DNA of 64,000 bases from Pseudomonas sp. NCCP-436 (GTDB lineage Bacteria; Pseudomonadota; Gammaproteobacteria; Pseudomonadales; Pseudomonadaceae): contig NZ_BPLZ01000002.1 of NCBI RefSeq assembly GCF_019656335.1, forward strand, positions 1-64,000, read 5' to 3'. The notes beneath the pieces are model-generated. The model ran no database searches, was not told the DNA's origin, and saw only the letters and a list, made by a program, of their open reading frames with translations. This document shows positions 4,661 to 20,839 of the stretch, piece after piece. Position numbers and translations under genes: made by a program. Position 1 is the first letter of the stretch. Every line of letters begins with the position of its first letter.

Positions 4661-5502
4661 ATGCGGTATTTCAGGGAGTTCAGTGGACGTTATCCATATC
4701 GGGTTCGTTTTTCCGATCTAACCATGCATTTGGCCGAAGGGATTTCGACTGATCTACTCGGGCAGGTGCATCAACTGATATGGACTCGCGAGCATGTTCA
4801 CCGCAAGAGCCGACTTTCCGGTGTTTTAGGGAGAGACGACCAGCGAGTGTTCGTTAAGACATCCAAGCTGGGTAGCCTGCTTCCCGTATACGGGTGACCC
4901 TTGGGCTGCCCCGGCGTCAGGGGATCTTCGATTGGGGGCTGGCGGAAGTCATCAATTCCATCGAGGCCTATCGGCGTGGGGTGCCTACGGCGCCGCTCAA
5001 GGGCTTTGGCTGTCGTCGCAGAGGCCGTGGCTTGGTCAGTGAGGTGTTCATCGTCAGTCAGTGGCTGGAAGGCCATGTGGACGGAGTGGAGTGGTTGCGT
5101 CAGCCCGGGGTTGATGTCGAGGAGTTTGTGCTAGGAGCGTTCGACCTTATTCGGGTGATGCATGAGAAAGAGGTTCATCATCTGGATCTGTGGGCGGCGA
5201 ACATCATGGTGGATCCGCATGGTGGCACCTACAGGGCGATAGACCTGGAGAACTGCTATCTCGGCAAGACGGACTTCCTGGCCGAGACATTGGGCTTTCA
5301 GTTTGGCTTCCTCTATTTTCGCGGACTGCATTCACTGCTGGACGAGGCGCATTATGACGCGCTGGTGGAACAGGCCCTGAGTGCTTATGCAGACATCGAC
5401 CGAAAGCGCTTTCAGGTGGTCTACCAGCCTTGCAAGCACCGACATGTCGGACGCAAGGAACGCGGTTGTATTCCTCAGTACGGCATACTGCCTAGCGATT
5501 GA
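4661..5502 (+). pseudogene. InaA/Kdo-kinase-like protein kinase-fold gene, split by frameshift
   Basis: Two overlapping frames encode the two halves of one kinase-fold protein of the lipopolysaccharide kinase/InaA type. The first, ending at a TGA at 4895-4897, carries the N-lobe strand QRVFVKTSKLGSL with the ATP-binding lysine. The second, open from a GTG at 4894, carries the catalytic loop HHLDLWAANIMVD and the metal-binding segment YRAIDLENC. Conserved-looking fragments occur in three frames around 4885-4912, so at least two indels are needed to rebuild one reading frame. GTGA overlap could instead allow coupled translation of two chains. The first 100 bases are AT-rich. The 3' end overlaps the convergent permease gene by 11 bases. 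Confidence 0.65.
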
Positions 5503-6763
5503 TTCCGGCTTGCCGGGTGGCCGAGCGAGCGTGGTGCAGCATGTCGAGGAGCGCCAGAGCGACCAGCAGACCGAGGCTGTAGAGAGCATCGCTGCCCAGT
5601 GTCAGCAGTACTGCCGCGCACAGGAATGTGGCAATGCCCGCCAGCAGGCGTCCGAGGCCGCGCAGCAATACCCAGCCCGCTGCCATGCTGAACAGGTAGA
5701 TGAGGATGAAGTTGCCGTTGGCGTAGCGGATCAGATCATCTACTGACAGCTCCAGAAGCAGGCTCAGTGTGGTGAAGAGTGCACAGCTGGCCACTACCAG
5801 CAGCAGGGCCCGGCCCGGAACCCCGTGCCGGTTGCGTACTGCCAGCGGGGCCGGCAGCCGCCCTTCATCGGCCAGGCTCCAGATCAGCCGGGCAAAACCC
5901 TGGATGTAGACGTTCATCGAGGCAAAGCAGGCCAGATAGCCGATCAGCGCCGCCAGAACCCGCGCCTTCTGGCCGAGCAAATGCTCGAACAGCAGGGGCA
6001 GGGCGGTGGTGTCGCGCTGCGCATCGCCATAGGTGGCGAAGCTCAAAATCGCCACCGAGCAGGCCCAGTACACCAGACCGGCCAGCAATACGCCGAGCAG
6101 CAGGGCCAGCGGGAAGTCGCGCTCGGGACGCCTGAACTCTTCGCCCAGATGGGTGAAGGCTTCAATGCCGACGAAGCACCAGAACATCACAGCAAGTGCC
6201 GTTGGCAACAGATGCCATTGGCCGTCCAGGCTCGGTAGCAGCGACTGATTCGGCTGCGGCAGGTCGCCCAGCCACCAGATCATTCCGACACTGGCGACGA
6301 TGGCCACGGCGATCAAACCCTGGATCAGCCCCGAGGCGCGCGGTGGACGCTGGCCAAGCAGGAGGATGGCTGCCAGAGTCAGCAACTGGATTGCCAGCAG
6401 GCCGGCCGTGTCCAGATCCAGCAGTGCCAGCCAGAAACCACTGGCGATGTGCAGGGCCGCAGGCAGTCCCACAGGCAAAACGGCGAGAAACAGCAGCGCA
6501 CTGATACGTTCCAGACGCAGGCCAAAGGCCTGACCGATCAGGTGCGGTGCGCCGCCGGCATGGGGAAAGCGCTTGCCCAGTTGAGCGAAGGTAAAGGCTA
6601 CCGGCAGTACCAGCGCGATCAGGATCAGCCAGGCCCACAGGGAGGCATCGCCTGCCACTGTGGCAGCCAGCGCCGGCACCACAAAGATGCCGGTGCCAAG
6701 CAGCGAAGTGCTGAGCAGGGCGACACCCTGCAGCAGGCCAAGTTCTTTGTTCAATCGACTCAT
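5492..6763 (-). CDS. yjeH: APC-family amino acid exporter, YjeH-like
   Basis: A 423-residue membrane protein with about twelve hydrophobic segments. The start, LGLLQGVALLSTSLLGTGIF, is the glycine-rich first helix typical of the APC superfamily and close to YjeH, the E. coli exporter of L-methionine and branched-chain amino acids. The helix containing FWCFVGIEAFTHLGEEFRRP is also characteristic. An Lrp/AsnC regulator is transcribed divergently, and a near-palindrome between them fits regulation of an amino acid exporter. Substrate is inferred from family and context. Confidence 0.85.
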   Translation of the reverse strand: MSRLNKELGLLQGVALLSTSLLGTGIFVVPALAATVAGDASLWAWLILIALVLPVAFTFAQLGKRFPHAGGAPHLIGQAFGLRLERISALLFLAVLPVGLPAALHIASGFWLALLDLDTAGLLAIQLLTLAAILLLGQRPPRASGLIQGLIAVAIVASVGMIWWLGDLPQPNQSLLPSLDGQWHLLPTALAVMFWCFVGIEAFTHLGEEFRRPERDFPLALLLGVLLAGLVYWACSVAILSFATYGDAQRDTTALPLLFEHLLGQKARVLAALIGYLACFASMNVYIQGFARLIWSLADEGRLPAPLAVRNRHGVPGRALLLVVASCALFTTLSLLLELSVDDLIRYANGNFILIYLFSMAAGWVLLRGLGRLLAGIATFLCAAVLLTLGSDALYSLGLLVALALLDMLHHARSATRQAGINR

Positions 6764-6831
6764 AAGGTATGCTCAGCGGGTTGCCGGTAGGCCATGATAA
6801 GAGGGCCGCCGTGAGCAAGCTGTCGGCGTTC

Positions 6832-6858
6832 GCCGGCACAATAACGGTTGTTGCCGGC
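6832..6858. promoter_or_regulatory. Near-palindromic operator candidate for the divergent Lrp-type regulator
   Basis: The two arms are GCCGGCACAA and TTGTTGCCGGC, which pair except for one extra base in the right arm, around a central TAACGG. The site lies in the 148-base gap between the exporter and the Lrp/AsnC gene, which is where such regulators usually bind. Binding is inferred only from position and symmetry. Confidence 0.4.
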
Positions 6859-6911
6859 AAACTGTCGAACCCGCCGGCAGGCTTTCACCAACCCGCTTTT
6901 CGAGATGCCCA

Positions 6912-7331
6912 GTGGATAAGTTCGATCATCAGATCCTCGCCCTGCTGCGTGCCGACGCACGCACGCCCGTCAGTCAGATTGCCCGCGCGGTCAACCTGTC
7001 CCGCTCGGCGGTCAGTGAGCGCATTCGCCAACTGGAGGAAAGCGGCATCATCCGCGGCTATCACGCCGAAGTGTGCTTGCCGGGTTCCGGCGAAGTGAAG
7101 GCCTTCTTCGAGCTGTTCTACCAGGGACGCCGTTGCGAGGACTATGTCGAGCGCATGCGCGCCATCCCCGAGGTACGTCGCTGCAGCGGCATCAGTGGTG
7201 AGACCGACATGCTGGTCTACATCGAAGCCGCAAGCATGGCGCGGCTCAGTGAAGTACGAGCGCAGATCGAAACCTTCCCGCATATGCAGCGGGTCAAGAC
7301 CCACATGGTCGTACAGGACTGGTCGCTATGA
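6912..7331 (+). CDS. Lrp/AsnC-family transcriptional regulator
   Basis: A 139-residue regulator with the family's N-terminal winged helix-turn-helix, residues 1-60 (FDHQILALLRADARTPVSQ and NLSRSAVSERIRQLEESGII), and the C-terminal RAM/ASNC ligand domain, which includes CSGISGETDMLVYIEA. The start is a GTG at 6912, since the ATG just upstream is out of frame. It is divergent from a YjeH-like amino acid exporter and its stop overlaps the start of sbcD as ATGA. An amino acid effector is likely from the family but is not shown by the sequence. Confidence 0.93.
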   Translation: MDKFDHQILALLRADARTPVSQIARAVNLSRSAVSERIRQLEESGIIRGYHAEVCLPGSGEVKAFFELFYQGRRCEDYVERMRAIPEVRRCSGISGETDMLVYIEAASMARLSEVRAQIETFPHMQRVKTHMVVQDWSL

Positions 7332-8551
7332 GCCTGCGTCTCCTGCATACATCCGACTGGCACTTGGGGCAGCACTTCATGGGCAAGACCCGCCAGGCCG
7401 AGCACCAAGCCTTCTGCGCCTGGTTGCTGGAACAGGTAAGGCAGCATGCGGTGGACGTGCTACTGATTGCCGGTGACCTGTTCGATACAGGCTCACCGCC
7501 CAGCTATGCGCGCGAGCAGTACTACCGGCTGGTGGTGCAGTTGCATGAGGCCGGTTGCAGCCTGGTGGTGCTGGGCGGCAACCACGACTCGCCGGCCATG
7601 CTTGGCGAAAGCCGCAGCCTGCTGGCGCAACTCGGTGCCCAGGTAGTACCGGGCGTCGCAAGGGAGCCGGACGACCAGGTACTGCTGCTCAACAACCGCG
7701 ATGGCCAACCAGGTGCAGTGCTCTGTGCCGTGCCCTTTATCCGCCCGCGTGATGTCCTGACCAGTCAGGCCGGACAAAGTGCGCAGGACAAGCAGCAAAA
7801 CCTGCAGCAGGCCATTGCCGGACATTACCGCGCGTTGTACGAGCGTGCTCTGGTCTACCGTACAGAACTGGGCCTGGAGCTGCCCATCATCGCCAGCGGA
7901 CACCTGACCACTGTTGGCGCCAGTGCCAGCGAATCGGTACGGGAAATCTATGTCGGCAGCCTTGAAGCCTTCCCCACCAATGCCTTCCCCCCTGCTGACT
8001 ACATCGCTCTCGGCCATATCCACCGTCCGCAGAAAGTGGCCGGGTTCGAGCACATCCGCTACAGCGGCTCGCCCATTGCCCTGTCTTTCGACGAGGCGCG
8101 TCAGCAGAAAGAAGTACTCCTGCTGCAGTTCGAGGCGGCCGCGCTACACACGGTTACCTCGCTGCCTGTGCCGGTATTCCAGCCATTGGCCAGCCTGCGC
8201 GGCTCGCTCAAGGAGCTGGCTGCGGGCATTGCCAAACTGGCCGCACAAGGCACGCCAGAACGGCCCGTATGGCTGGAGCTGCAGGTCAACAGCGACGACT
8301 ACCTGAGCGACTTGCAGGGACGCATCAACGCCCTGTGCGAGGGTTTGCCGGTAGAAGTACTGCGCATTCGCCGCGAGCGTGGCAGCAACGTTGCCAGCCT
8401 GACCGGCGAAGCCCGCGAGACTCTGGACGAGCTCGGTGTCGAAGACGTATTCAACCGGAGACTGCAGCAGGAAGCACTGGATGAAGAGGACATCCGGCGC
8501 TTGCAGCAGCTCTACCGGCAGGTGCTGGAGGAGCTGCCCGAGGGCCGCTGA
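7328..8551 (+). CDS. sbcD: Exonuclease subunit SbcD
   Basis: A 407-residue Mre11-type phosphoesterase. The metal-binding motifs are visible in order: HTSDWHLGQ at the N-terminus, IAGDLFDTG, LGGNHDSPAM, IASGHLTT and IALGHIHRPQ. With SbcC it forms the nuclease that opens DNA hairpins and processes ends during replication and repair. It overlaps the upstream Lrp gene by four bases. In most Pseudomonas chromosomes sbcC follows directly, but here an integron of almost 9 kb separates the two, so the subunits are no longer obviously co-transcribed. Confidence 0.97.
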   Translation: MSLRLLHTSDWHLGQHFMGKTRQAEHQAFCAWLLEQVRQHAVDVLLIAGDLFDTGSPPSYAREQYYRLVVQLHEAGCSLVVLGGNHDSPAMLGESRSLLAQLGAQVVPGVAREPDDQVLLLNNRDGQPGAVLCAVPFIRPRDVLTSQAGQSAQDKQQNLQQAIAGHYRALYERALVYRTELGLELPIIASGHLTTVGASASESVREIYVGSLEAFPTNAFPPADYIALGHIHRPQKVAGFEHIRYSGSPIALSFDEARQQKEVLLLQFEAAALHTVTSLPVPVFQPLASLRGSLKELAAGIAKLAAQGTPERPVWLELQVNSDDYLSDLQGRINALCEGLPVEVLRIRRERGSNVASLTGEARETLDELGVEDVFNRRLQQEALDEEDIRRLQQLYRQVLEELPEGR

Positions 8552-8569
8552 TCGGGCACCCTGATCAAT

Positions 8570-8590
8570 GCGTAACAAATCGCTCAGGCG
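8570..8590 (+). other. Possible attC half-site remnant between sbcD and intI
   Basis: The bases GCGTAACAAATCGCTCAGGC resemble the left half (R''-L'') of an attC. They share the 14-mer TAACAAATCGCTCA with the attC sites at 11068 and 15412. There is no matching right half before the end of intI at 8601. It may be the scar of an ancestral cassette site, or a chance match. Confidence 0.35.
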
Positions 8591-8600
8591 TCTGGTGCGC

Positions 8601-9563
8601 TCACCCCAGTGGACTGATCACCCCGGCAAACCCCTGGCCCAGCACGTGGGTATATATCTGCGTTGTGCGTATATCTGCGTGCCCTAGCAGCGTCTGCACT
8701 GTGCGAATGTCGCTCCCCCGACGCAGTAGCTCGGTGGCGAAACTGTGGCGAAAGGTATGGCAACTTGCTGGCTTGTGCAGATTGGATTGCCGGACGGCAT
8801 GTCTGACAGCTTTCTGAATGGCACTGACATGAAGGTGATGACGAACGATCTGCCCGTCCTCATCCGTGCAAAGCCCGGTCGACGGGAACAACCATTGCCA
8901 CTCGAATGAACATCCGGCCTTGGGGTATTTGCGACGTAACGCAAATGGCAGGCTGACGGGAGCGTGATAAAAGCTGTCCCGCTGCTTCCAGGCGCGAAAC
9001 ATACGCTCTCTGCGCTCCAGCAGCGGTGTGATCAAGGGCGCCGGCAGGAGTGTTGTTCGGTCCTTGGCGCCTTTGCCGTCGTGAATGGTGATGACCTGTT
9101 TATCGAAATCCATATCCTTGATACGCAAACGTGCAGCTTCCACCACTCGCAAGCCGGCGCCGTACATTAGCGAAGCCAGTAGTTGATGCGGTTGCCCAAG
9201 CCTGGCAATGAGTGCTGTGGCTTCCTCATGCGTAAGGACGCAGGGAATACGCGCCGAGCGTTTTGCGCGCACCACCTCACCCACTTGCCCGAGCGGTTGT
9301 TGCAAGACCTTGGCGTAAAGGAAAACCAGTGCATTGAGTGCCAGATTCTGAGTAGCGGCAGCCACCTGGCGCTCAACTGCCAGCCAGGTGAGAAAAGCGT
9401 TGACCTCGATAGCGCCAAGCTCCATTGGATGACGCAGTTGATGGAGGCGGATGAAATAGCGAATCCAGTACCAGTAGGATTTTTCTGTGCGGATACTGTA
9501 GTGATGCAACCGCATCACCGCCCTGAACTGCTCTTGCAGGCGAGGTTTGCTGGAGGTTTCCAT
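8601..9563 (-). CDS. intI: Integron integrase IntI
   Basis: A 320-residue tyrosine recombinase. The core-binding domain covers about residues 10-95. The catalytic residues are visible as the arginine in [16 protein letters not shown], the box [12 protein letters not shown], and [16 protein letters not shown] with the tyrosine nucleophile. The IntI-specific extra segment (patch III), around [17 protein letters not shown] and WQWLFPS, separates it from other tyrosine recombinases. It inserts and excises cassettes at attI and attC. The gene points away from the array, as in mobile and chromosomal integrons of Pseudomonas, and is intact. Its promoter carries a perfect LexA box. Confidence 0.97.
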
Positions 9564-9577
9564 GGCCGACTCCCTGG

Positions 9578-9593
9578 CTGTGTTTTTGTACAG
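9578..9593. promoter_or_regulatory. LexA (SOS) box in the intI promoter
   Basis: The sequence CTGTGTTTTTGTACAG has the CTG-N10-CAG form of the LexA operator. It lies 15 bases upstream of the intI start codon and just downstream of the -10 hexamer, where bound LexA would block transcription. SOS induction of integrases through such a site is established for class 1 and Vibrio integrons. Confidence 0.85.
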
Positions 9594-9594
9594 T

Positions 9595-9624
9595 AGTAAT
9601 GGTAGAGCAAAAAGAGGAAGTCAA
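9595..9624 (-). promoter_or_regulatory. Candidate intI promoter
   Basis: On the minus strand a -35 hexamer TTGACT (9619-9624) is followed after 18 bases by ATTACT (9595-9600) as -10. The LexA box begins two bases further downstream. The match is reasonable but has not been tested against alternatives. Confidence 0.5.
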
Positions 9625-9711
9625 GCGAATACGTCCAGACACCAGGAGCTGGCTGGTAATTTCATGATTTGAAAAGAGTTTTTCTAGAGCTGCGATGACG
9701 ATGATGCGGAG

Positions 9712-9769
9712 TTAGATGGAAGGCTCTACTATCGGATTAGTACCGCCTTCCATCTAATCACTGTTAGCC
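9712..9769 (+). other. attI recombination region with a perfect 13-base inverted repeat
   Basis: The crossover point for the first cassette is G/TTAGCC at 9763, preceded by CATCTAATCACT, which resembles the simple L/R structure of attI sites. Just upstream, TTAGATGGAAGGC (9712-9724) and GCCTTCCATCTAA (9745-9757) are exact inverted repeats around a 20-base spacer. The left arm begins with GTTAGAT at 9711, itself a GTTRRRY motif. Which part the integrase actually recognises is not shown by the sequence. Confidence 0.6.
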
Positions 9770-9789
9770 ATACGGAAACTCAGTGTGAA

Positions 9790-10242
9790 ATGAAAAGAAA
9801 TAATCAATCCACCTGCTTCGTTGTAAGTCTGCTATTTCTTAGCGTGGCAATGGTTTTTTGGTCTGACCTGTATCTTTTTGCTAAAACAGTTCGACTACCA
9901 GAATGGGCGGAGTCATTGCCAAGTCCCATAAATGCACCTAAATATATTGCATTCTTATGCCTGATTCCTGCGGTATTATTCGCAAATACATTCACTAATG
10001 CATTTGCGCAAATATCAAAGATAATTCTTATAGCCTCTATATTTCCGGTACTAATTTACATCTTCAAAACAAATAGTCAGGGTATTGAGCTAATCTACAA
10101 CGTGATATTCCAATACCTTTGGGTTATTGGCTGGAATTGTTTATTACCAGCACTTGTTCTGCTTGGGGTGCACACAATATGGCAGTTTTTAGCTATCAGG
10201 CTAACCCATCATTCAAGCGGGACGCCTAACGGCGCCCCTTAA
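9790..10242 (+). CDS. Cassette 1: small integral membrane protein of unknown function
   Basis: A 150-residue protein with four likely transmembrane segments (about residues 10-30, 45-68, 75-95 and 112-140). I do not recognise a family. The reading frame runs into the attC, so its last residues (LTHHSSGTPNGAP) are encoded by the recombination site and are probably not functional. It is the first cassette behind attI, beginning at 9763, and so the best placed for expression from any promoter in the integrase region. The ribosome-binding site is weak. Codon use is clearly more AT-rich than the surrounding chromosome, as expected for a cassette of foreign origin. Confidence 0.75.
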   Translation: MKRNNQSTCFVVSLLFLSVAMVFWSDLYLFAKTVRLPEWAESLPSPINAPKYIAFLCLIPAVLFANTFTNAFAQISKIILIASIFPVLIYIFKTNSQGIELIYNVIFQYLWVIGWNCLLPALVLLGVHTIWQFLAIRLTHHSSGTPNGAP

Positions 10243-10256
10243 TTCAAACGTTATAC
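10199..10256 (+). other. attC site of cassette 1 (58 bp)
   Basis: R'' is GGCTAAC at 10199-10205, the complement of the cassette start GTTAGCC. R' is GTTATAC at 10250-10256. The centre forms a short GC-rich palindrome, GGGACGCC and GGCGCCCC. It is the shortest site in the array. Confidence 0.9.
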
Positions 10257-10271
10257 GCCATAAGGAAATCT

Positions 10272-10709
10272 ATGCGTACACTCAACATTTCTTTAATTTC
10301 CGCCACTGGTGCATTTGCACTTTTACTTACGTCTATTGCCTATCCAACGTTGGGGGAGCGGCCACTTTCACACTGGGCCTTAAATGTTGGAGCATTTTCT
10401 AGCGCCGCACTTATATCTTTAGTTTACATTTTCACGTCGCTCATCCCGCCGCTAGATCATAAAAAATCACACTCAGTAGTTCTCACAACTTATTTCATTT
10501 GTTTAGTAATTGCGACTTTCACTGGCGCATTTTGGGGCGTTGTCGGCCATGTTATGGAAACAGAAAAAGTAGATTTTGAAACTGCGCTCTGGCATGCAGA
10601 AATTATGATTTACAGTGGCTACATACTGACGACAGCAATTTTAAGCAGTACCTTGCTATATCTAATTAAGCAACGCAGGAACTCAGTACAAGCAGCTGTA
10701 AACGTATAA
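10272..10709 (+). CDS. Cassette 2: four-helix membrane protein of unknown function
   Basis: A 145-residue protein with four hydrophobic segments, at about residues 5-25, 38-60, 70-95 and 110-132, and the charged stretch METEKVDFETALWHAE between the last two. No family is recognised. TAAGGAAA lies about 8 bases before the ATG, so translation should be efficient. The stop codon lies inside the R'' of the attC, as in several cassettes here. Cassette limits are 10250-10772. The AT-rich codon use sets it apart from chromosomal genes of the window. Confidence 0.78.
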   Translation: MRTLNISLISATGAFALLLTSIAYPTLGERPLSHWALNVGAFSSAALISLVYIFTSLIPPLDHKKSHSVVLTTYFICLVIATFTGAFWGVVGHVMETEKVDFETALWHAEIMIYSGYILTTAILSSTLLYLIKQRRNSVQAAVNV

Positions 10710-10779
10710 CAATAGGTTCAAATCGTTCGCTGCGCTCACTGGGACGGGCTAAAGCCCGCCCCTTAACCAAACGTTATGT
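10704..10779 (+). other. attC site of cassette 2 (76 bp)
   Basis: R'' GTATAAC at 10704-10710 complements the cassette start GTTATAC. R' is GTTATGT at 10773-10779. The internal part, with CGGGCTAAAGCCCG at its centre, is nearly the same as in the attC sites at 13358 and 14091, the 76-78 bp type characteristic of this array. Confidence 0.92.
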
Positions 10780-11148
10780 GAAAAGCAGTTCACCCTAGAA
10801 AACGATCAAGGATCAAGCGGAATGAAGTCAAGACTTAAACTAAAAGATGGCGAAGAGTTGAAACGTATTAGCTCCCGCACCAAGGGCTTTATGGAGGAAA
10901 CCGATATAATTGAATACCATATTGTGAATAGCGCCGGTGAGGTCGTCGGAACCGTCACGCATACAGACCATACAGCCGTTCGTGGTTTCAAAAGGACTCA
11001 GACCGTTGAACAAAAAGACTTGGCTGGTAACACAATTGTTTCAGATTCATGGTAGCGAAGCGGTAACACATAACAAATCGCTCAAGTAAGTTCCGGGCCT
11101 GTTGGCCCTCCACCGGACGCGGCTAAAGCCGCGCCGCTTAGCTCAGGC
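10773..11148 (+). repeat. Duplicated 376-bp cassette, copy A
   Basis: This complete cassette is identical by eye to 15117-15492 at a constant offset of 4344 bases, including its attC up to the crossover point. The two copies are direct repeats around cassettes 4 to 8. Confidence 0.93.
10822..11055 (+). CDS. Cassette 3: 77-residue hypothetical protein, first copy
   Basis: A small soluble protein starting MKSRLKLKDGEELKRIS, rich in charged residues and predicted to be mostly beta (IIEYHIVNSAGEVVGTVTH). I do not recognise a family. The whole cassette, 10773-11148, is repeated without any visible base change at 15117-15492, so the open frame is either selected or very recently copied. A weak purine-rich stretch precedes the ATG. 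The two copies flank cassettes 4 to 8, which include the CBASS, endonuclease and HEPN genes. Confidence 0.75.
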   Translation: MKSRLKLKDGEELKRISSRTKGFMEETDIIEYHIVNSAGEVVGTVTHTDHTAVRGFKRTQTVEQKDLAGNTIVSDSW

Positions 11149-11155
11149 GTTAGCG
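11068..11155 (+). other. attC site of cassette 3 (88 bp)
   Basis: R'' ACATAAC at 11068-11074 complements the cassette start GTTATGT. R' is GTTAGCG at 11149-11155. The internal stem includes GCGGCTAAAGCCGC. The same site, except for R', recurs at 15412. Confidence 0.92.
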
Positions 11156-11173
11156 CTTCGCAAAGGAGAGGTG

Positions 11174-12049
11174 ATGAGTCTAGAAGACAAGTTGACCGGT
11201 TGGACCGGTCCTTCGAGTGACACAGAGCAGGAAAAACAAGATCGGACAGAGCGAATGATTCGCGATGCTATTAGCTCACACATTCCTTTTAACAATTGCT
11301 CTCTAAAGATTTATGCGAAAGGTTCTTATGCAAACAACACCAATGTGCGCGCAGACAGCGACGTGGATATTGCAGTCGAGTGCACGGACGTCCTTTACTG
11401 GGAGGAGGAAGAGTCTGGGATTTACACCCCAGGAACACCATATGAAGGCATATGGACTCCTGCAAAACTTAGATCAGAACTCGTCGCTGCTTTGAAAGCA
11501 AAATTCCCAAATCAAGTCGACACCACAGGATCTACAGCCATTCAAGTAAACTCTAGCTCTTCACGCGTTGACGCTGATGTCGTTCCGTGTTTTAGCTACG
11601 AGTACCATACGAAATATGAAACGAGACAAGGAACAAAGATATTCAAGACTGACGGTGGCAGTATCGTCAACTACCCTGCTCAGCAATTGGAGAACGGAAT
11701 AGCTAAAAATAAGCGAACGGGCTACGCATTTAAAAAGGGGGTGCGTTTGTTAAAGCGCGTTGAGAACGCGATGGCTGAAGATGGAGTATTTAGGGAGTTG
11801 CCATCCTATTTTATGGAATGCCTAGCGTACAATTGTCCAGATTCAGTCTTTAGTCATTCAACCTGGACGGATTGTCTTCGCGGAATGCTTTTTCATATTT
11901 GGGATCAACTTCAAGGTGACGAACCGTCTTCTGGTCGGTGGGTTGAAGTAAATGGTTGTTATTACTTATTCCATCCAGGACAAAAATGGTCCCGTATGGA
12001 CGGGCGCGAGTTTGCCAAAGCGGCTTGGAATTACTTTGGATTCAAATAA
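11174..12049 (+). CDS. Cassette 4, gene 1: CD-NTase (cGAS/DncV-like nucleotidyltransferase) of a CBASS system
   Basis: A 291-residue nucleotidyltransferase of the SMODS/CD-NTase type. The motif GSYANNTNVRADSDVDIAVE (about residues 52-71) holds the glycine-serine and the two metal-binding aspartates, and SSSRVDADVVP supplies the third acidic residue. Such enzymes make a cyclic oligonucleotide signal when phage infection is sensed. The ATG at 11174 is preceded by AGGAGAG at a good distance, while the longer frame to 11102 would read through the previous attC. Its stop overlaps the next start as TAATG, so the two genes form a tight pair. The nucleotide product and the clade cannot be told from motifs alone. 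Confidence 0.85.
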   Translation: MSLEDKLTGWTGPSSDTEQEKQDRTERMIRDAISSHIPFNNCSLKIYAKGSYANNTNVRADSDVDIAVECTDVLYWEEEESGIYTPGTPYEGIWTPAKLRSELVAALKAKFPNQVDTTGSTAIQVNSSSSRVDADVVPCFSYEYHTKYETRQGTKIFKTDGGSIVNYPAQQLENGIAKNKRTGYAFKKGVRLLKRVENAMAEDGVFRELPSYFMECLAYNCPDSVFSHSTWTDCLRGMLFHIWDQLQGDEPSSGRWVEVNGCYYLFHPGQKWSRMDGREFAKAAWNYFGFK

Positions 12050-12711
12050 TGCGCAATGTAACACTAAAAAGTTCGCTGTATTTGCTGGTGGGAATCTCGG
12101 CAGTCGCTTGGTTTTCGCTCGCCTACTTTGGCGGGCTCGATCTGTCAAAGCTAAAAGACTTTTTTGGGCTTGTTCCAAAAGTGGTGAGCATTGATCTTTT
12201 AGTCATCGCTGTCTTCGTTAAATGGGGCTGGAAACTAAAAATATTCAGAGGGTGGCTTGTTCCATTTCCAAATTTGAACGGAAGTTGGGTGGGATTTATC
12301 TATTCAGATTGGAAAAATCCAGCGACGGGCGAAAAGCCACCTCCAATACCAGTTATGCTGACCGTGAACCAGTCCTTCTTCCACATTAGTTGCATGATGC
12401 GTACAAGTGAAATGGAAAGTTCTTCGTATTCTGAGGGCTTTCTTATAGATCCCGATCGGCAGATAAAAAACGTAGCATATTCCTATACTAGTAAGCCTAG
12501 ATTGAGTTTGAGCGAAAGAAGTATCCCCCATGATGGAACAGCAGTGTTTCAGATCATTGAGAAGCCAAAACAAAAATTGGTGGGTCGGTATTGGACAGAA
12601 AGATTAACAAAAGGGGAGATGGTGCTTGAGTATCACTCAAAAGACCTGTTAGAGGAACTTCCAGAAGATTTGGGCGAGCACCCCGTAACAGAGAATGAAA
12701 ATAGGCGCTAA
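12049..12711 (+). CDS. cap15: Cassette 4, gene 2: Cap15-like membrane beta-barrel CBASS effector
   Basis: A 220-residue protein with two transmembrane helices near the N-terminus (about residues 7-29 and 43-62) followed by a soluble, beta-strand-rich domain opening FPNLNGSWVGFIYSDW. This order of parts matches Cap15, a CBASS effector whose beta-barrel binds the cyclic nucleotide and whose helices assemble in the inner membrane to disrupt it and abort infection. The preceding gene is a CD-NTase and overlaps it by one base, which supports the call strongly. The stop codon is inside R'' of the attC. No accessory Cap2/Cap3 or HORMA/TRIP13 genes follow, so the system is the minimal two-gene type. 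Confidence 0.8.
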   Translation: MRNVTLKSSLYLLVGISAVAWFSLAYFGGLDLSKLKDFFGLVPKVVSIDLLVIAVFVKWGWKLKIFRGWLVPFPNLNGSWVGFIYSDWKNPATGEKPPPIPVMLTVNQSFFHISCMMRTSEMESSSYSEGFLIDPDRQIKNVAYSYTSKPRLSLSERSIPHDGTAVFQIIEKPKQKLVGRYWTERLTKGEMVLEYHSKDLLEELPEDLGEHPVTENENRR

Positions 12712-12777: not shown

Positions 12778-12801
12778 CCAGCAGAAATATTGAGGTGTCG
12801 C

Positions 12802-13344
12802 ATGTTATTAAATGGTGGCCCTATAAATTCAGCTCCACTGAACGGTGCCCCCGTGCTGGCCCGGTTCGACTTACAATCGAAGCAAGGTAAAAAATCAATA
12901 ATACAGGTCGCCTCCCTAGCTGACCGCGCGCTAATAGAGCGACTACACAAATACCCAAACGATCTTCGAGTAATTGATCGCCGCCTATTTGAAGAAATAG
13001 TTGCAGAAATATTTCTCGGATTTGGTTACCAAGTTGAGCTGACACAAAGAACACGCGACGGCGGAAAAGACATAATCGCTGTAAAAGAAACTGAAATAAA
13101 TCTGCGCTTTCTTATTGAGTGCAAGCGTCCAGACCCAGGAAACGCCATTGGAGTTTCCGCTGTAAGAGAGTTGTACGGTGTAAAAGTCGATGACGGAGCT
13201 ACCAAGGCTATTCTTGCTACCACAACTCACCTTTCTCAAGACGCGAAAATGTTCATAGAAAAGCATCGTTGGGAGCTGGAAGGCAAAGAGTACGACGGCA
13301 TCCTAGAGTGGATCTCAAATTATATAAAACAACCAAGCCATTGA
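12802..13344 (+). CDS. Cassette 5: Mrr-type restriction endonuclease-like protein
   Basis: A 180-residue protein whose C-terminal two-thirds is a PD-(D/E)xK nuclease of the Mrr_cat type. FEEIVAEIFLGFGYQVELT is the leading helix-strand. RDGGKDIIAV gives the catalytic aspartate and FLIECKRPD the E-x-K pair. The segment KAILATTTHLSQDAKMF is the usual Mrr finishing strand and helix. Mrr-like proteins cut modified or foreign DNA. No methylase or helicase partner is present. The ATG at 12802 was preferred to a TTG twelve bases upstream because GAGGTG precedes it. It directly follows the CBASS cassette, which suggests a defence role. Confidence 0.82.
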   Translation: MLLNGGPINSAPLNGAPVLARFDLQSKQGKKSIIQVASLADRALIERLHKYPNDLRVIDRRLFEEIVAEIFLGFGYQVELTQRTRDGGKDIIAVKETEINLRFLIECKRPDPGNAIGVSAVRELYGVKVDDGATKAILATTTHLSQDAKMFIEKHRWELEGKEYDGILEWISNYIKQPSH

Positions 13345-13357
13345 CCTTCTCGGCTTG

Positions 13358-13433
13358 GTCTAACAAGTGGTTCAAACCGTTCGCTTCGCTCACTGGGACG
13401 GGCTGAAGCCCGCCCCTTAACCAAACGTTGGGC
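13358..13433 (+). other. attC site of cassette 5 (76 bp)
   Basis: R'' GTCTAAC at 13358-13364 complements the cassette start GTTAGAC. R' is GTTGGGC at 13427-13433. The centre CGGGCTGAAGCCCG and flanks are nearly the same as in the sites at 10704 and 14091. Confidence 0.92.
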
Positions 13434-13439
13434 ATATAA

Positions 13440-14087
13440 ATGGCTTTCACTCCGATCCAAGCCTCAAAGGCATGCATTCGTCGAAGTCGACGACTACTTG
13501 ATCTAGCTAATGCAAACTTGCCAGACAATAAAATTAAAAATGACCTCCGGCGATCGGCTCTTGTAATGGCCGTGACTGGCATAGATTCCTATATGCACTG
13601 GCTTGTATATCAAAGGCTTTCGGATGTAAGAAAACAAGGCGACCTGCCGAAGTCACTGGCGAAAATCGACCTCCCATTTTCAGAGCTTGCGTCACTGGCC
13701 GACGCTACGATTGCAGGCCGAAAAAAGAACCGCACAATACGCCCATGGGTTCAAGTAAAAAATGCAATGCAGCGACGCCTACTCAAAGAAACATTTCAAT
13801 CGTATGAGCAAGTAGGGAATGCACTGTCACTAGCAGGCATAGATAAAGGATGGTCCCGAACCGCTGAAAAGCTTGGAATAAAATCCGAAGAAATAAAAAC
13901 AAAATTAAACCATCTGGTACATCGCAGAAATCAAGTTGTCCATGAGGGAGATATAATGCGCGCCTCCCGCCCACAAAAGCTTAAGTACAACGAAATAGCA
14001 CACGATGACGTAGTGGCTGACGTAAATTGGATCGAAACCCTGATGGCAGCCATAGAGCAAGTCGTTCAGGAGGAAGCTCCCAAGTGA
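13440..14087 (+). CDS. Cassette 6: HEPN-domain protein, probable ribonuclease toxin or defence protein
   Basis: A 215-residue, largely helical protein. Near the C-terminus the sequence HLVHRRNQVVHEGD carries the R-x4-H motif (RNQVVH) of catalytic HEPN domains, and the first half (ALVMAVTGIDSYMHWLVYQRL) resembles the leading helices of the RiboL-PSP-HEPN group. HEPN proteins of this type cleave RNA and occur in toxin-antitoxin, abortive infection and other defence systems. No antitoxin gene is found in the cassette. The ATG is only 13 bases from the cassette start and no Shine-Dalgarno sequence is evident, so translation may depend on the upstream message. Family is likely; activity is inference. 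Confidence 0.72.
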   Translation: MAFTPIQASKACIRRSRRLLDLANANLPDNKIKNDLRRSALVMAVTGIDSYMHWLVYQRLSDVRKQGDLPKSLAKIDLPFSELASLADATIAGRKKNRTIRPWVQVKNAMQRRLLKETFQSYEQVGNALSLAGIDKGWSRTAEKLGIKSEEIKTKLNHLVHRRNQVVHEGDIMRASRPQKLKYNEIAHDDVVADVNWIETLMAAIEQVVQEEAPK

Positions 14088-15123: not shown

Positions 15124-15492
15124 GAAAAGCAGTTCACCCTAGAAAACGATCAAGGATCAAGCGGAATGAAGTCAAGACTTAAACTAAAAGATGGCGAAGA
15201 GTTGAAACGTATTAGCTCCCGCACCAAGGGCTTTATGGAGGAAACCGATATAATTGAATACCATATTGTGAATAGCGCCGGTGAGGTCGTCGGAACCGTC
15301 ACGCATACAGACCATACAGCCGTTCGTGGTTTCAAAAGGACTCAGACCGTTGAACAAAAAGACTTGGCTGGTAACACAATTGTTTCAGATTCATGGTAGC
15401 GAAGCGGTAACACATAACAAATCGCTCAAGTAAGTTCCGGGCCTGTTGGCCCTCCACCGGACGCGGCTAAAGCCGCGCCGCTTAGCTCAGGC
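15117..15492 (+). repeat. Duplicated 376-bp cassette, copy B
   Basis: Identical by eye to 10773-11148. It is cassette 9 of the array. Recombination between the copies would remove or duplicate the 4344 bases that include cassettes 4 to 8. Confidence 0.93.
15166..15399 (+). CDS. Cassette 9: 77-residue hypothetical protein, second copy
   Basis: The product is identical to that at 10822, a small charged protein of no known family. The open frame can be extended upstream to 15106, but that part reads through the preceding attC, so the ATG at 15166 matches the first copy. The duplication of an entire cassette with no visible divergence points to a recent event: either re-insertion of an excised copy or unequal recombination. 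Confidence 0.75.
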   Translation: MKSRLKLKDGEELKRISSRTKGFMEETDIIEYHIVNSAGEVVGTVTHTDHTAVRGFKRTQTVEQKDLAGNTIVSDSW

Positions 15493-15860: not shown

Positions 15861-16250
15861 ATGATCTGGACTATTTACGCTGCTCTACTTAGCTTGTTCT
15901 TCGCATTTCTCACTTTCCGCACCATTCGCCTTAGGCAGCGCTACCGCGTTTCGCTCGGTCACGGAAAGAATCTTCTCCTAATGCGGGCCATCCGCGTCCA
16001 CGGTAACTTCGCCGAGTACGTGCCGCTCGGACTGCTCCTTATGGCAGCGTCTGAGCAACTGGGTGCGCCGAGTCTGCTGGTTCATTCCCTTGGCAGCCTG
16101 TTGGCGCTCGGTCGGCTCGTCCATGCCTACGGAGTGTCGCAGGAGAACGAAGTCTTGCGATTTCGGGTCACTGGCATGGCGCTTACGTGCATCTGTTACG
16201 TCCTCGCCGCCGGGTATATCCTGCTTTCAGCGTTTTCTGGTAATGCCTAA
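15861..16250 (+). CDS. Cassette 11: MAPEG-family membrane protein
   Basis: A 129-residue protein with four transmembrane segments. MRAIRVHGNFAEYVPLGLLLMA is the conserved MAPEG segment (R-x2-NxxEY-type), followed by GSLLALGRLVHAYGV. MAPEG proteins include glutathione transferases and related bacterial inner-membrane proteins of uncertain role (YecN-like). GGAGAG precedes the ATG at 15861. The stop codon overlaps R'' of the attC, which is cut short by the IS1111-type remnant. MAPEG genes are common in environmental cassette collections. Confidence 0.85.
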   Translation: MIWTIYAALLSLFFAFLTFRTIRLRQRYRVSLGHGKNLLLMRAIRVHGNFAEYVPLGLLLMAASEQLGAPSLLVHSLGSLLALGRLVHAYGVSQENEVLRFRVTGMALTCICYVLAAGYILLSAFSGNA

Positions 16251-16256
16251 CAATTC
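16245..16256 (+). other. Truncated attC of cassette 11, interrupted by an IS
   Basis: GCCTAAC at 16245-16251 complements the cassette start GTTAGGC and is followed by AATTC. Instead of the expected L''/L' arms the sequence changes to TATATGGACTCTCCCC, typical of an IS1111-type end. The right half with R' is absent. Confidence 0.75.
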
Positions 16257-16518
16257 TATATGGACTCTCCCCACAAGTAGTGAGTAAAGCTTTGCTTTTG
16301 CACCTATCGTCAGCGCGGTTGCATTCGTATATCCGGCCTGTTCCGGGCTCTTGCGCCCTGGCCATTCTGTAGTTCGCGCAGCGGGGGCCAAGCGTTCAAT
16401 CGATCACGACGATCATCATTGTTATCGGCCTTGTTCCGCTGCAGGACTCGCCTGTTCCGACAGTGCTGCTCACCACAACCACCAGAAAACCATCACACCT
16501 TCCTGATTACCCTCGCCG
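16257..16518 (-). ncRNA. Candidate bridge RNA/seekRNA region of the IS1111-type element
   Basis: In IS1111-group elements the guide RNA that selects target and donor sites is encoded in the non-coding end downstream of the transposase gene. These 262 bases are in that position and hold no open frame. No RNA structure was computed, so the exact limits and the guide loops are not defined. With a broken transposase the RNA would have no partner from this copy. Confidence 0.4.
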
Positions 16519-17320
16519 TCAGGCGGGCTTTACACTCTGCCAATTGCCATTGAAACGCCGCTCGTGACACCACACCGCCCAGCAGATCCGCACCAGTTTG
16601 TTGGCCAGGGCCACAGCCGCTTTGTTGTGGCCGATCCGCGCCGCCGTTTCCACCGCCCAGCGCTGCAATTGCGTCAGCTTCTCTGGTGTACGGGCGTGGC
16701 AACGTTGTGCCGCCAGCAAGGCTGCACGTGAGCCATGGATCAGTAACGTACGCACATAGATATTGCCCTGTCGGCTGATATGCCCGAGCTTGCGGCTATT
16801 GCCGCTGCTGAACTCGCGCGGCGTCATACCCAGCCAGGCGCTCAGGTGCCTGCCGCTGCCAAAGCGCTCGGGCTTGCCAACAGCGGTCGTCAGGGCACTG
16901 GCTGTTAGCAGCCCGATGCCGCTGACTTCATCCAGTTTGCGCACGATGTCGTCATCGGCATGCCAGCGCTTGAGCTGTTGTTCGCACTCGGCCATGCACT
17001 GTTCGTAGAGGTTGATCTCGGCCAGGACGATATGCAGCAGGCGGCTCAAAGGTGCGACTTCAGGTTGCTCAACCAACTCACTGGCCGCCCGGATGAAAGC
17101 GACGGTTGAGGTCGGGGCTTCGATCCACGCTTCACACAGCTTACCGCGCAGCAGGTTGATGCGCTGGGTGCAACTCTTCTTCCTGGTTTCCCGCAGCCCG
17201 TGCAGTTGCTGGAGCTGTTGCTGATCACGGCTCTTCACCGACACTGGATGAATGTCGGTACTCCGCTTCCAGCATGGCATTGCAATCATGGCGATCGGCT
17301 GTGTTGCAACGGCGATAGGG
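16519..17320 (-). pseudogene. IS1111-type transposase, N-terminus lost and frameshifted
   Basis: The open part encodes 256 residues covering the C-terminal two-thirds of an IS110-family transposase. VSVKSRDQQQLQQLHGLRE marks the start of the conserved region, LDEVSGIGLLTASALTTAVG the helix-hairpin-helix, and LSAWLGMTPREFSSGNSRK and YVRTLLIHGSRAAL the serine-containing C-terminal domain. The frame just upstream (about 17262-17320) still encodes PYRRCNTADRHDCNAMLEA in a different register, which matches the NKTDRxDA region of the family. So there is at least one frameshift near 17260, and the DEDD catalytic N-terminus is gone. The element cannot move by itself. Confidence 0.8.
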
Positions 17321-17404
17321 GCTATTCACTGCTCCAGACAAAGGGCCTGCAAGTGACCATCGTCAATGCCAGAATGGCCACTTTCAACGATTAGCCTTCC
17401 GTGC

Positions 17405-20400
17405 ATGAAAATCCTCACGCTGCGTTTGAAGAACCTCAACTCGCTCAAGGGCGAATGGAAGATCGATTTCACTGCCGAGCCCTTTGCCGGTAGTGGTTTG
17501 TTCGCCATTACCGGGCCAACCGGTGCGGGCAAGACGACATTGCTCGATGCCATCTGTCTGGCGCTGTATCACCGCACGCCGCGTATGAGCAGCTTGTCGG
17601 TTAACGGCAACGAGCTGATGACGCGGCATACCGCCGATTGTCTGGCCGAGGTGGAGTTCGAGGTGAAGGGGCAGGGCTACCGGGCCTTCTGGAGCCAGCG
17701 TCGAGCGCGGGACAAAGTGGACGGTGCCTTGCAGGCGCCAAAGGTCGAGCTGGCGCGACTGGCCGATGGCGCAATCCTTACTGACAAGATCCGCGAGAAG
17801 GAAAGCCTCACTGCCGAGCTGACCGGTCTGGACTTTGAACGCTTTACCAAGTCAATGCTGCTGGCTCAGGGGGGCTTCGCGGCCTTTCTTGAGGCCAGCG
17901 CCAACCAGCGTGCGGAATTGTTGGAGGAACTCACGGGCACCGAGATCTATGGACAGATTTCCCGGCAGGTCTATGAACGCACCAAGTCCGCCGAGCAGGC
18001 CCTGAACCTGCTGAAAAGCCGCGCTCAGGGCATGGAGTTGCTGGACCAGGCGCAGCGCGCCGAATTGCAGGCCGAGTTTGAGCGTCTGAGCCGGGAGGAG
18101 ACGTCGCTATTGCAGCGGCAGCAGGCGTTGCTATTGCAGCGGCGCTGGCGTGAAGCGCTGCAACAGGCCGAGCAGCAACGCGAGCAGGCCCGCCAGGCAC
18201 TGGAGCAGGCGCAGCAGGCACGCAACGAGGCGTCCACTGATCTGCGGCGTCTGGCTGCCAGTGAGCCGGCTGTGCGGCTACAACCGCTGTATCAGAGCTG
18301 GCAGCAGGTGCTGACTGACCGCAGGCAGGCGCAGCAGGTGCTGGCCGATTTGCAGGCGCAACAACGCCAGTGCAGCGCACGTGAGCGTCAGCAACTCTGG
18401 TTGGCCAGTTGCTATGCCTGGCAGAGCTTGAGACAGCGTCAGTGCGAGCAAAAACGGCTGGCCGAGCAGCGTGAAGCCGTGCAGGCGCGCCTGAGTGCAG
18501 CTCCGCAACAGGCACGGCTGGGCGAGTTGCTGGTTGGCTGGCGTGCGCAGTTCGATCAGCGCGGTCAGCAGCTCAGGGACCGGCAGGCACTGCAGTCCCG
18601 TATCGCCCAGGCGCATGAGCAGCTTGCAGGTGTGCAACGGCAACGTGCTCAGTCCGACGCGGAACAGGCGCAGGCAACGGAGCGTCTGGAGCAGGCGCGA
18701 AGTCTCGAAGCCAGGCTGCACAGTGAGCTGCAGGTGCTACTCGGCGAGTACGACGAGGCCGGACTGCGTCAGCGCTGGCAACAATTGCAGGTGCAGGGAA
18801 GAGCGCTGGATCGTCTGGAGCAATTGGCGCAAAGCCGTGAGAAAGCAGCGGAGCAGCTCGCCGAGCTAGCATCGCGCCTGGCGCAGTTGCAAGCACGGCA
18901 CACAGCCAGGAACGATGAAATCGCCGCCCTGCGTGAACGCTACAGGGGACTCAGGCTGCAGGTTGCCGACAAGGAAAGGCTGCTGGAGCAGGAGCAGCGC
19001 ATTCAGGCTCTGGAAACCCATCGTGCCCGTTTGCAGCCGGGGGAGGCCTGCCCATTATGCGGCTCGCACGAGCATCCGGCGGTTCGTCAGTATCAGGCAC
19101 TCGATGTCTCTGCCACCCGTCAGGCTCTGGAACAGCTTCGCCGTGAGCTGGAGCTGTTGGAGAGCCAGGGGGGCACCCAGCGTGACGAACTGACTCGTCT
19201 GGCTACGCAGATCGAGCAGCTCCAGCAGCAGTTGGCGCAGGTGCGGCAGCAGGAGGCTGAGCAGGAAGCGAGTTGGCAGCAGCAACTAGCCGAGCTGGCT
19301 TCGCAGGTTGCCGATGGCGCCGCTCTGCGGCAGATGCTGCGCGATCATGAGCAGAGCCTGATGCAGTTGCAGGAGCAAATCGCTGCCGTCGAGAGCAAGC
19401 AGGAGCAATTGGTGCAGGCTCGCAGGGCGCGTGAACAGGCCGAACGGGCCTTGGCCGATACGCAGCAGCGTCAGGCTTTGCTTGAGCGCGATGACGAAAA
19501 CCTGCAGGCCCGTTTGCGCGAACAGGACGAGCAGCTGCAGTTACTGGAGCAGGAGTTGCTGCGTCATGAACAGGCATTGCTGGCCAGCCTCGACGGCTTT
19601 GCCACGGCGTTGCCGCCGGATGTCGACAGTTGGCTGGACGAGCAGGCAAGCGCCTGGCGCGACTGGCAGCAGGCCCAGTTGCAGGATCAGCAATTGCAGG
19701 ATCTGCAGCGCGAGATACAGCGGCTGCTTGCCGAGGCCCAGACCCAGGCAGAGTACTGGCAGCAGCGCTGGCAGAACGATGACGCTCAGGAGCTGGCAGA
19801 GCCAGAACTGGCGGAGCAACCTGTGCAGGCCCTGCAGGAGACCATTGAAAGTCTGGCCAGTGCACAGCGCGATGGTGATGCTCTGCGAGGTCGTCTGCTG
19901 AGTCAGCAGAGTCTGCTGCAACAGCTTGAGCAGCGCCTGAGGGAAACCGAACTGCGTTGGCAAGAGGCGCTGGCTGCCAGCCCGTTCAGCGATCTGCCGG
20001 CATTTCTTGCCGCACTGCTCGACGAGAGCGAGCGGGCGCGCCTGATGGATCTGCAGACACGCCTGCAGCAGGCTCTCACCGAGGCGACAACATTGCTGAC
20101 CGCTGCCGAAGCGCAATTGCACGATCTCAAGGCCGCGCCGCAGACCGAACTGACGCTGGCACAGCTGGACGAGCAGTTGCAGGCGCTACAGCTGACACTG
20201 CGCGAGCTGAGCCAGCGTCAGGGCGAACTGCGCGCACAGCTGCAGGCCGATGATGCGCGGCGCAGCAGCCAGCAGGCGCTGTTTGCCGAGATTGAAACCC
20301 AGCAGAGCGAGTGTGCGCTCTGGCAGCAGCTCAACGGTCTGGTCGGTTCGGCCGATGGCGCCAAGTTCCGCAAGTTCGCCCAGGGGCTGACCCTCGACCA

Positions 20401-20839
20401 CCTGATCCATTTGGCCAACCGCCAGTTGGCGCGGTTGCACGGGCGCTACCAATTGGCACGCAAAGGCAGCGGCGAGCTGGAGCTGGAGGTACGGGATACC
20501 TGGCAGGCGGACGTGGCTCGCGATTGCCGCACGCTGTCCGGTGGTGAAAGTTTCCTGGTCAGTCTGGCCCTGGCCCTGGCATTGTCTGATCTGGTCAGCC
20601 ACAAGACCAGCATCGACTCGCTGTTCCTTGACGAGGGTTTCGGTACGCTGGATGGCGAGACGCTGGAGATAGCACTGGATGCGCTGGATAACCTCAATGC
20701 CAGCGGCAAGACCATCGGCGTGATCAGCCATGTCGAGGCAATGAAAGAGCGGATTCCCGTGCAGTTGCGGGTTCACAAGGGCGTTGGCCTTGGTTACAGC
20801 CGGCTTGACGCACGTTTTGCAGTGAAGGAAGGAGCGTAG
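17405..20839 (+). CDS. sbcC: Exonuclease subunit SbcC
   Basis: A 1144-residue Rad50-like SMC ATPase. Walker A is ITGPTGAGKTTLLDA near residue 37. Long glutamine-rich coiled coils flank the zinc hook CPLCG at about residue 549. The signature LSGGESFLVSLALALALS and Walker B SLFLDEGFGTLD are near the C-terminus. It is the partner of SbcD in hairpin and end processing. The ATG at 17405 gives the family start MKILTLRLKNLNSLKGEW, while thirteen upstream in-frame residues are not conserved. Normally it follows sbcD directly. Here the nearest upstream sequence is an IS remnant, so its expression must come from a promoter in that remnant or from read-through of the array. Confidence 0.96.
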   Translation: MKILTLRLKNLNSLKGEWKIDFTAEPFAGSGLFAITGPTGAGKTTLLDAICLALYHRTPRMSSLSVNGNELMTRHTADCLAEVEFEVKGQGYRAFWSQRRARDKVDGALQAPKVELARLADGAILTDKIREKESLTAELTGLDFERFTKSMLLAQGGFAAFLEASANQRAELLEELTGTEIYGQISRQVYERTKSAEQALNLLKSRAQGMELLDQAQRAELQAEFERLSREETSLLQRQQALLLQRRWREALQQAEQQREQARQALEQAQQARNEASTDLRRLAASEPAVRLQPLYQSWQQVLTDRRQAQQVLADLQAQQRQCSARERQQLWLASCYAWQSLRQRQCEQKRLAEQREAVQARLSAAPQQARLGELLVGWRAQFDQRGQQLRDRQALQSRIAQAHEQLAGVQRQRAQSDAEQAQATERLEQARSLEARLHSELQVLLGEYDEAGLRQRWQQLQVQGRALDRLEQLAQSREKAAEQLAELASRLAQLQARHTARNDEIAALRERYRGLRLQVADKERLLEQEQRIQALETHRARLQPGEACPLCGSHEHPAVRQYQALDVSATRQALEQLRRELELLESQGGTQRDELTRLATQIEQLQQQLAQVRQQEAEQEASWQQQLAELASQVADGAALRQMLRDHEQSLMQLQEQIAAVESKQEQLVQARRAREQAERALADTQQRQALLERDDENLQARLREQDEQLQLLEQELLRHEQALLASLDGFATALPPDVDSWLDEQASAWRDWQQAQLQDQQLQDLQREIQRLLAEAQTQAEYWQQRWQNDDAQELAEPELAEQPVQALQETIESLASAQRDGDALRGRLLSQQSLLQQLEQRLRETELRWQEALAASPFSDLPAFLAALLDESERARLMDLQTRLQQALTEATTLLTAAEAQLHDLKAAPQTELTLAQLDEQLQALQLTLRELSQRQGELRAQLQADDARRSSQQALFAEIETQQSECALWQQLNGLVGSADGAKFRKFAQGLTLDHLIHLANRQLARLHGRYQLARKGSGELELEVRDTWQADVARDCRTLSGGESFLVSLALALALSDLVSHKTSIDSLFLDEGFGTLDGETLEIALDALDNLNASGKTIGVISHVEAMKERIPVQLRVHKGVGLGYSRLDARFAVKEGA

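What the first reader, a model, noticed from the sequence alone, without database searches (positions are those of the whole stretch)
16245..17404. An IS1111-type remnant in the last attC, with a candidate guide RNA and a lost array end
The attC of cassette 11 stops after GCCTAACAATTC and changes to an IS1111-type end. The transposase lacks its catalytic N-terminus and is frameshifted, and no other IS end or attC half remains before sbcC. A deletion therefore probably removed part of the IS and any cassettes beyond it, so the array was once longer. The 262 non-coding bases may preserve a bridge RNA whose guide loops should match attC.
Basis: partly seen in the sequence, partly recalled or inferred. 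Interest (0 to 1): 0.55.

Follow-up and report, generated by a model that had tools for sequence, protein, structure and literature searches.

The report
Broken attC-targeting insertion sequence capping an integron
The end of this bacterium's gene-cassette array is closed by the broken remains of a known kind of RNA-guided jumping element that inserts into cassette junctions, and similar broken ends close cassette arrays in related species.

Summary
Window 16257-17320 is the right-end side (1072 of 1381 bp) of an IS1111-attC group element close to ISPa62 (88% identity), inserted in the attC of the last cassette of a chromosomal integron between sbcD and sbcC. The transposase keeps residues 80-348 with one frameshift. 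The left end, the attC right half and two neighbouring chromosomal genes (HD hydrolase, GGDEF protein) are missing; searches found neither gene elsewhere in the genome. The 262-base non-coding region is a conserved seekRNA/bridge-RNA region; its two 7-nt guides, TAACAAT and TTGAACG, stand in the published order, and the first matches the adjoining attC half exactly. No other PF02371 transposase was found in the genome, so the RNA looks orphaned. 'The array was once longer' is unproven: the deletion reached the chromosome, but lost cassettes are not required. Beyond the finding, right-end remnants recur at array/chromosome boundaries: a second integron in this genome has one, and in 99 genomes of the genus right-end-only remnants outnumber left-end-only ones 24 to 4 (five at contig ends dropped; not all independent). 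The element is of a known kind; only the capping pattern may be new.

The parts
7328..8551 (+). sbcD, proximal chromosomal flank of the integron
   Evidence: ORF; homologues beside intI in L038, L039, L048
8601..9563 (-). integron integrase intI
   Evidence: NCBIfam TIGR02249, E 1.3e-121; 98% (best segment) to P. mendocina FFL34 and 97% to P. alcaliphila
16245..16256 (+). left (5') half of the attC of the last cassette, cut by the IS
   Evidence: similar flanks in other copies
16257..16272 (-). IS right end: 3-bp extension TAT plus 13-bp subterminal inverted repeat
   Evidence: identical right end in the seven plasmid relatives; their left ends carry the repeat with at most one mismatch
16257..16518 (-). 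non-coding region carrying the seekRNA/bridge RNA, read on the minus strand
   Evidence: 49-copy alignment, 12-copy alignment and consensus fold
16386..16430 (-). target-binding hairpin; both guides lie in one internal loop of the consensus fold
   Evidence: in the lone fold of the window RNA four pairs form between the two guides
16418..16424 (-). guide 1 (RNA UAACAAU): same sequence as the attC flank, so pairs with its complementary strand
16393..16399 (-). guide 2 (RNA UUGAACG): matches the attC junction TTCG/TTCAA of relatives; its own target half is deleted here
16519..17320 (-). transposase pseudogene: residues 100-348 at 16519-17265, frameshift, residues 80-98 at 17264-17320
   Evidence: tblastn; PF02371 E 2e-20; NF033542
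17321..17404 (+). deletion junction and remaining chromosomal spacer upstream of sbcC
   Evidence: gapped local alignments to the sbcC upstream spacer of G008 (score 60), FFL34 (57) and G012 (47)
17405..20839 (+). sbcC, distal chromosomal flank
   Evidence: homologues

Best explanation
An IS1111-attC group element related to ISPa62 inserted, by its RNA guide, into the attC of the last cassette of a sedentary chromosomal integron and split that site (the split is shown; the guided act is inferred from published work on ISKpn4 and ISPst6). Later one deletion, or several, removed the element's left end, the first 79 codons of the transposase, the right half of the attC, and the HD hydrolase and GGDEF genes between the array and sbcC (their absence is shown; that it was one event is inferred). 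What is left is immobile: one end, a frameshifted transposase, and no other such transposase found in the genome. The guide region survives as a well-preserved relic. The attC can no longer pair its two halves, so the last cassette is probably frozen (inferred), and the remnant marks the array's end.
For: IS homology 86-88% over about 1070 bp. Six of seven opened plasmid copies sit at the same point in attC. Guides, their order and the consensus loop agree with the seekRNA paper. FFL34 and G390 show sbcD-array-HD-GGDEF-lipoprotein, with sbcC next in FFL34. No match in the own genome for HD (3 of 5 relatives rang strongly), for the first 59 GGDEF residues (3 of 3 relatives rang, one being the query's source) or for a second PF02371.
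Against: No relative with the pre-deletion junction was found, so breakpoints are not exact and the number of events is unknown. G012 has no HD match and G008 only a 23-residue one, so HD may have been lost earlier. The lone 125-nt RNA does not fold better than its shuffles (z 0.27). Guide matches of 7 nt arise in 59 and 144 of 1000 shuffles singly and in 10 of 1000 together. Few base pairs of the consensus fold co-vary (3 of 61).
Confidence: 0.82

Rival explanations
1. The array was once longer: the deletion removed further cassettes beyond the IS as well as its left end.
For: In P. mendocina FFL34 an intact IS lies two cassettes before the array end, and in G390 one cassette follows the left-end remnant.
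Against: FFL34 also has what looks like a 7-bp left-end scar (TACAGCA) in the terminal attC itself, so insertion in the terminal attC seems to occur; nothing seen in the window points to lost cassettes.
Confidence: 0.4
2. The truncation was made by the element's own RNA-guided recombination between its end and a chromosomal look-alike site.
For: IS110-type recombinases can rearrange DNA between programmed sites (passages read).
Against: Break points inside the element vary widely between copies (right-end pieces of 32 to 1072 bp), not at the core; this looks like ordinary illegitimate deletion.
Confidence: 0.05
3. The orphan guide RNA or right end is kept for a function of its own (for example, as a boundary or regulator).
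For: The region is nearly intact here, and right-end remnants outnumber left-end ones. At one locus shared by seven genomes, remnants of the same lineage are more alike than the adjoining gene in 5 of 5 distant pairs (93.6-94.7% against 87.6-90.2%).
Against: Remnants of the two lineages there are less alike than the gene in 10 of 10 pairs, and close pairs are about equal. Several remnants end before the guide hairpin. No sigma-70-like promoter was found in 16200-17500.
Confidence: 0.08

Closest known systems
ISPa62 and relatives, IS1111-attC group of the IS1111 (IS110) family
   Same: Same right end, non-coding region, transposase (92% identity over 249 residues) and insertion point in attC.
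   Different: Left end, residues 1-79 and one reading frame are lost; the base before the right end is C, where most copies have G.
seekRNA of ISKpn4/ISPst6 (PMC11187229; parts 1-3 of 9 and passages read)
   Same: Downstream non-coding region, two short guides for the two target strands, same order, attC target.
   Different: Here a relic without a transposase; expression untested.
Sedentary chromosomal integrons of Pseudomonas mendocina, oleovorans and alcaliphila
   Same: Integrase 96-98% identical and placed beside sbcD (L048, L039, L038).
   Different: This copy has lost the chromosomal genes between the array and sbcC, and the genome has a second integron. Two further close integrases (P. 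composti L040, Pseudomonas sp. P818 L041) had no sbcD match in the DNA fetched, so the place is not universal.

Membership tests
IS1111 family, attC-targeting group | Subterminal inverted repeats with 7-bp left and 3-bp right extensions | tested here: inconclusive
   Right repeat and TAT extension present at 16257-16272; the left end is deleted in this copy but present in relatives.
IS1111 family, attC-targeting group | Long non-coding region downstream of the transposase gene | tested here: met
   16257-16518, downstream of the stop.
IS1111 family, attC-targeting group | DEDD transposase with C-terminal PF02371 domain | tested here: met
   PF02371 E 2e-20, NF033542 179.8 bits against cut-off 140; residues 1-79 of the N-terminal domain are lost.
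IS1111 family, attC-targeting group | Insertion at one fixed point and orientation in attC | tested here: met
   attC left half TAACAATTC abuts the right end; similar flanks in most other copies, not all.
IS1111 family, attC-targeting group | Mobile, forms a circular intermediate | tested here: not met
   By sequence: one end only, frameshifted transposase, no other PF02371 match in the genome. It is the remnant of a member, not an active one.
seekRNA / bridge RNA | Two guides matching the two target strands, top-strand complement first | tested here: met
   UAACAAU then UUGAACG in the RNA sense; the second could be checked only against junctions of relatives.
seekRNA / bridge RNA | RNA made and bound by the transposase | not testable with these tools
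   Needs RNA sequencing and co-purification.

The most novel reading that the evidence does not exclude
RNA-guided insertion of IS1111-attC elements pins the distal ends of chromosomal cassette arrays. The insertion disables the terminal attC, and the side facing the chromosome then erodes, leaving right-end remnants as lasting caps. This would explain why right-end-only remnants far outnumber left-end-only ones and border GC-rich chromosome, and would make the element a regular agent of array ageing and of integrase-less arrays.
Probability: 0.35. Interest if true: 0.5.

Novelty: new member of a known kind. Interest (0 to 1): 0.33.

Why it matters
The element itself is ordinary. If the capping pattern is general, it would give a simple way to find fossil ends of integron arrays, to compare them across species, and to test whether an RNA-guided element shapes how sedentary integrons stop growing and break up. 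A well-preserved orphan guide relic is also a natural record of a past target.

Tried and rejected
Rfam: no family at gathering scores for the whole window, nor at E 0.1 for 16200-17500. The translation of 17320-17390 looked like an IS110-type motif; rejected, because part of it is sbcC upstream sequence shared by relatives. Recurrent right-end pieces of about 190-220 bp were first taken for a solo guide-RNA module; not upheld, because seven of them are one shared place at the end of a sensor-kinase-like gene (recognised by eye) and their lengths differ (188, 205, 217). I had first written that these diverge about as much as the neighbouring gene; one search is mixed (more alike within a lineage in 5 of 5 distant pairs, less alike between lineages in 10 of 10, about equal in 6 close pairs), so I raised the odds of the 'kept for a function' rival from 0.05 to 0.08. 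In the script I had entered 9 and 8 attC for the window and L180; one search lists 8 and 7; the tallies by locus do not change. Guide/flank co-variation is weak: guide 1 p 0.079, guide 2 p 0.028, uncorrected for relatedness; of the 59 copies, 14 were dropped (11 with no parsed guide, 3 without a TAA-type flank), one was kept for guide 2 only (L154) and one with a flank read by eye (L038, second copy). One search scored only 2 candidates per genome, so it was not used for the right/left count; two searches were (up to 7 scored per genome).

Full report
What is there. At window 16245-16256 the left half of an attC (GCCTAACAATTC) meets TAT-ATGGACTCTCCCC at 16257. In the plasmid collection, 52 records hold a match and 50 of them cover at least 80% of the query; the rows listed are annotated as ISPa62, ISPpu24, ISPa21 or unnamed IS110 elements. 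Seven were opened. In six the element splits an attC at the same point. The right repeat is the same, the left repeat has at most one mismatch, and outside them lie TAT on the right and TACAGCA on the left (TACAGCC in one). The seventh, ISPa21 in pS810a, sits in a non-attC site. Homology of the window copy ends at 17320. Against the 348-residue ISPa62 transposase it keeps residues 80-98 and 100-348 in two frames. PF02371 and the NCBI IS110 model both exceed their cut-offs.

Where it is. The integrase (TIGR02249) and the cassettes lie between sbcD and sbcC. Integrases 95-98% identical are found in P. mendocina FFL34, P. alcaliphila, P. oleovorans, P. composti and Pseudomonas sp. P818. In the first three they lie beside sbcD; in the last two no sbcD was matched in the DNA fetched. 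The FFL34 integrase is read in two pieces with a gap of about 140 bp. In FFL34 (L048) the order is sbcD, integrase, array with an intact IS, last attC, HD hydrolase, GGDEF protein, lipoprotein, sbcC. The last attC before HD in FFL34 carries TACAGCA, which looks like the scar of a left end. The names HD and GGDEF come from reading the sequences; no family search was run on them.

What was lost. Window 17321-17404 aligns, with gaps, to the spacer upstream of sbcC in relatives: best with G008 (score 60), where the GGDEF gene precedes it, then FFL34 (57) and G012 (47). The HD protein gave no match in the own genome, strong matches in G064, G198 and G390, none in G012 and a 23-residue match in G008. 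The first 59 residues of the GGDEF protein gave none in the own genome but matched G008 (the query's source), G012 and G390. The lipoprotein gave none; G012 and G390 have it by tblastn in my box, and G008 was not matched, so it may be a later gain. So the truncating deletion, or a set of them, reached the chromosome. Whether cassettes lay beyond the IS cannot be told.

The guide RNA. The region 16257-16518 aligns with 48 other copies. In the 12-copy consensus fold TAACAAT and TTGAACG (as DNA) lie on the two sides of one internal loop, closed by GGCC pairs and capped by a GATC hairpin. Few pairs co-vary (3 of 61). Folded alone, the 125-nt window RNA forms four pairs between the two guides and is no more stable than its shuffles (z 0.27), so the fold rests mainly on conservation. 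Guide 1 equals the adjoining attC flank over 7 nt; guide 2 matches the junction TTCG/TTCAA of class-1-type attC over 7 nt and the commoner CTGG/TTCAA over 6. The order is that reported for IS1111 seekRNAs (PMC11187229; parts 1-3 of 9 and passages read). PMC11208160 (passages only) also places IS1111 bridge RNAs in the right end. In 1000 dinucleotide shuffles a 7-nt match to guide 1's target arose 59 times, to guide 2's 144 times, both together 10 times. Across copies, 36 of 44 agree with their flank over the first 6 nt of guide 1 (16 of 44 over 7), and 20 of 25 over the 5 nt of guide 2 that face the left flank; the excess over permutation is small (p 0.079 and 0.028). Two copies with CTCAA instead of TTCAA at the left flank (L168, L170) have the matching change in guide 2, and one P. 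alcaliphila remnant has TCACAA in both guide 1 and flank. Against this, one guide is changed with an unchanged flank (L014), and four flanks are changed without the guide (L158, L005, L150, L016). PF02371 finds only this remnant in the genome, and no sigma-70-like promoter was found in 16200-17500, so the RNA is probably silent (inferred).

A second integron. Contig C14 of the own genome (L180) has an integrase 95% identical, 7 attC by the model, and at its distal end a 37-bp right-end remnant fused to an ECF sigma gene after about codon 109; at the other end lies a decayed sbcD 3' fragment. Four of four relatives fetched there (G012, G390, G008, G198) have the whole sigma gene. In G390 a DUF692-type operon (recalled name) and an AraC-type regulator follow without a low-GC stretch. 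In G198 attC-like repeats, and no integrase match, lie at that place. In G078 a short right-end remnant (84-110 bp) is followed by what I read by eye as the anti-sigma gene. One 588-bp stretch holding a cassette is 99.5% identical between the two integrons.

A wider pattern. Equal 250-bp queries from the two ends, in the same 99 genomes, gave 32 right ends and 13 left ends (counted by hand, the weakest ones near E 1e-4 included). Six elements have both. After dropping 2 right and 3 left ends at known contig edges, 24 right-only and 4 left-only remain (binomial p 0.0002). They are not independent: the right-only ones come from 10 genomes, and some are one inherited locus. For 26 right-end remnants in 25 fetched loci, GC of the neighbouring 1 kb was higher on the broken side in 26 of 26 (mean 0.61 against 0.47); the window has 0.61 against 0.50. 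With the attC model, 15 of 26 loci (the window and 25 fetched) had attC or attC halves on the right-end side and 1 of 26 (L201) on the broken side; 10 had none on either. Left out of these tallies: L183 and one of two remnants in L186, where an attC right half follows directly; L182, L206 and L209 (contig ends); L190, L199, L210, L212 and L214 (complete, gapped, rearranged or internally deleted copies). Not every remnant has an attC flank: L022 and one copy in L027 do not.

Reading. The best account is ordinary: RNA-guided insertion into the last attC, then decay. The asymmetry may mean that a dead terminal attC stays while the chromosome side erodes, or only that deletions toward the integrase remove the integron and are not seen. 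Earlier notice of the cap pattern was not found in the listings, but the two founding papers on this IS group are not held, so no claim of first report is made.

Noticed in passing
window 11165-12708: ORFs for an oligonucleotide cyclase and a Cap15-type 2TM effector, that is, a small CBASS-like anti-phage system inside the integron.
   Followed up: partly
window 12790-14087: The next two ORFs code for an Mrr-type restriction endonuclease domain and a HEPN RiboL-PSP protein, so this part of the array looks like a defence cluster.
   Followed up: partly
window 10822-11055 and 15166-15399: The same 77-residue ORF occurs at two places of the array.
   Followed up: no
L180 (G000:C14) 3758-12480: A second integron in the same genome, with a decayed sbcD 3' fragment at one end and a 37-bp IS right-end remnant at the other, replacing part of an ECF sigma gene and genes that follow it in relatives.
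   Followed up: partly
L193, L196, L184, L189, L197, L198, L200: Seven genomes share an array/chromosome boundary at the end of a sensor-kinase-like gene, each with a right-end remnant of 188-217 bp; two carry what looks like a different IS lineage, perhaps a repeated insertion. Within a lineage the remnant is more conserved than the gene beside it in distant pairs, unexplained.
   Followed up: partly
L008 1508: ISPa21 on plasmid pS810a sits in a non-attC site near dndB that resembles the target (CAATTCG).
   Followed up: no
L034 / L016 (genome G060): An internally deleted copy keeps both ends and the guide region, like a non-autonomous element.
   Followed up: no
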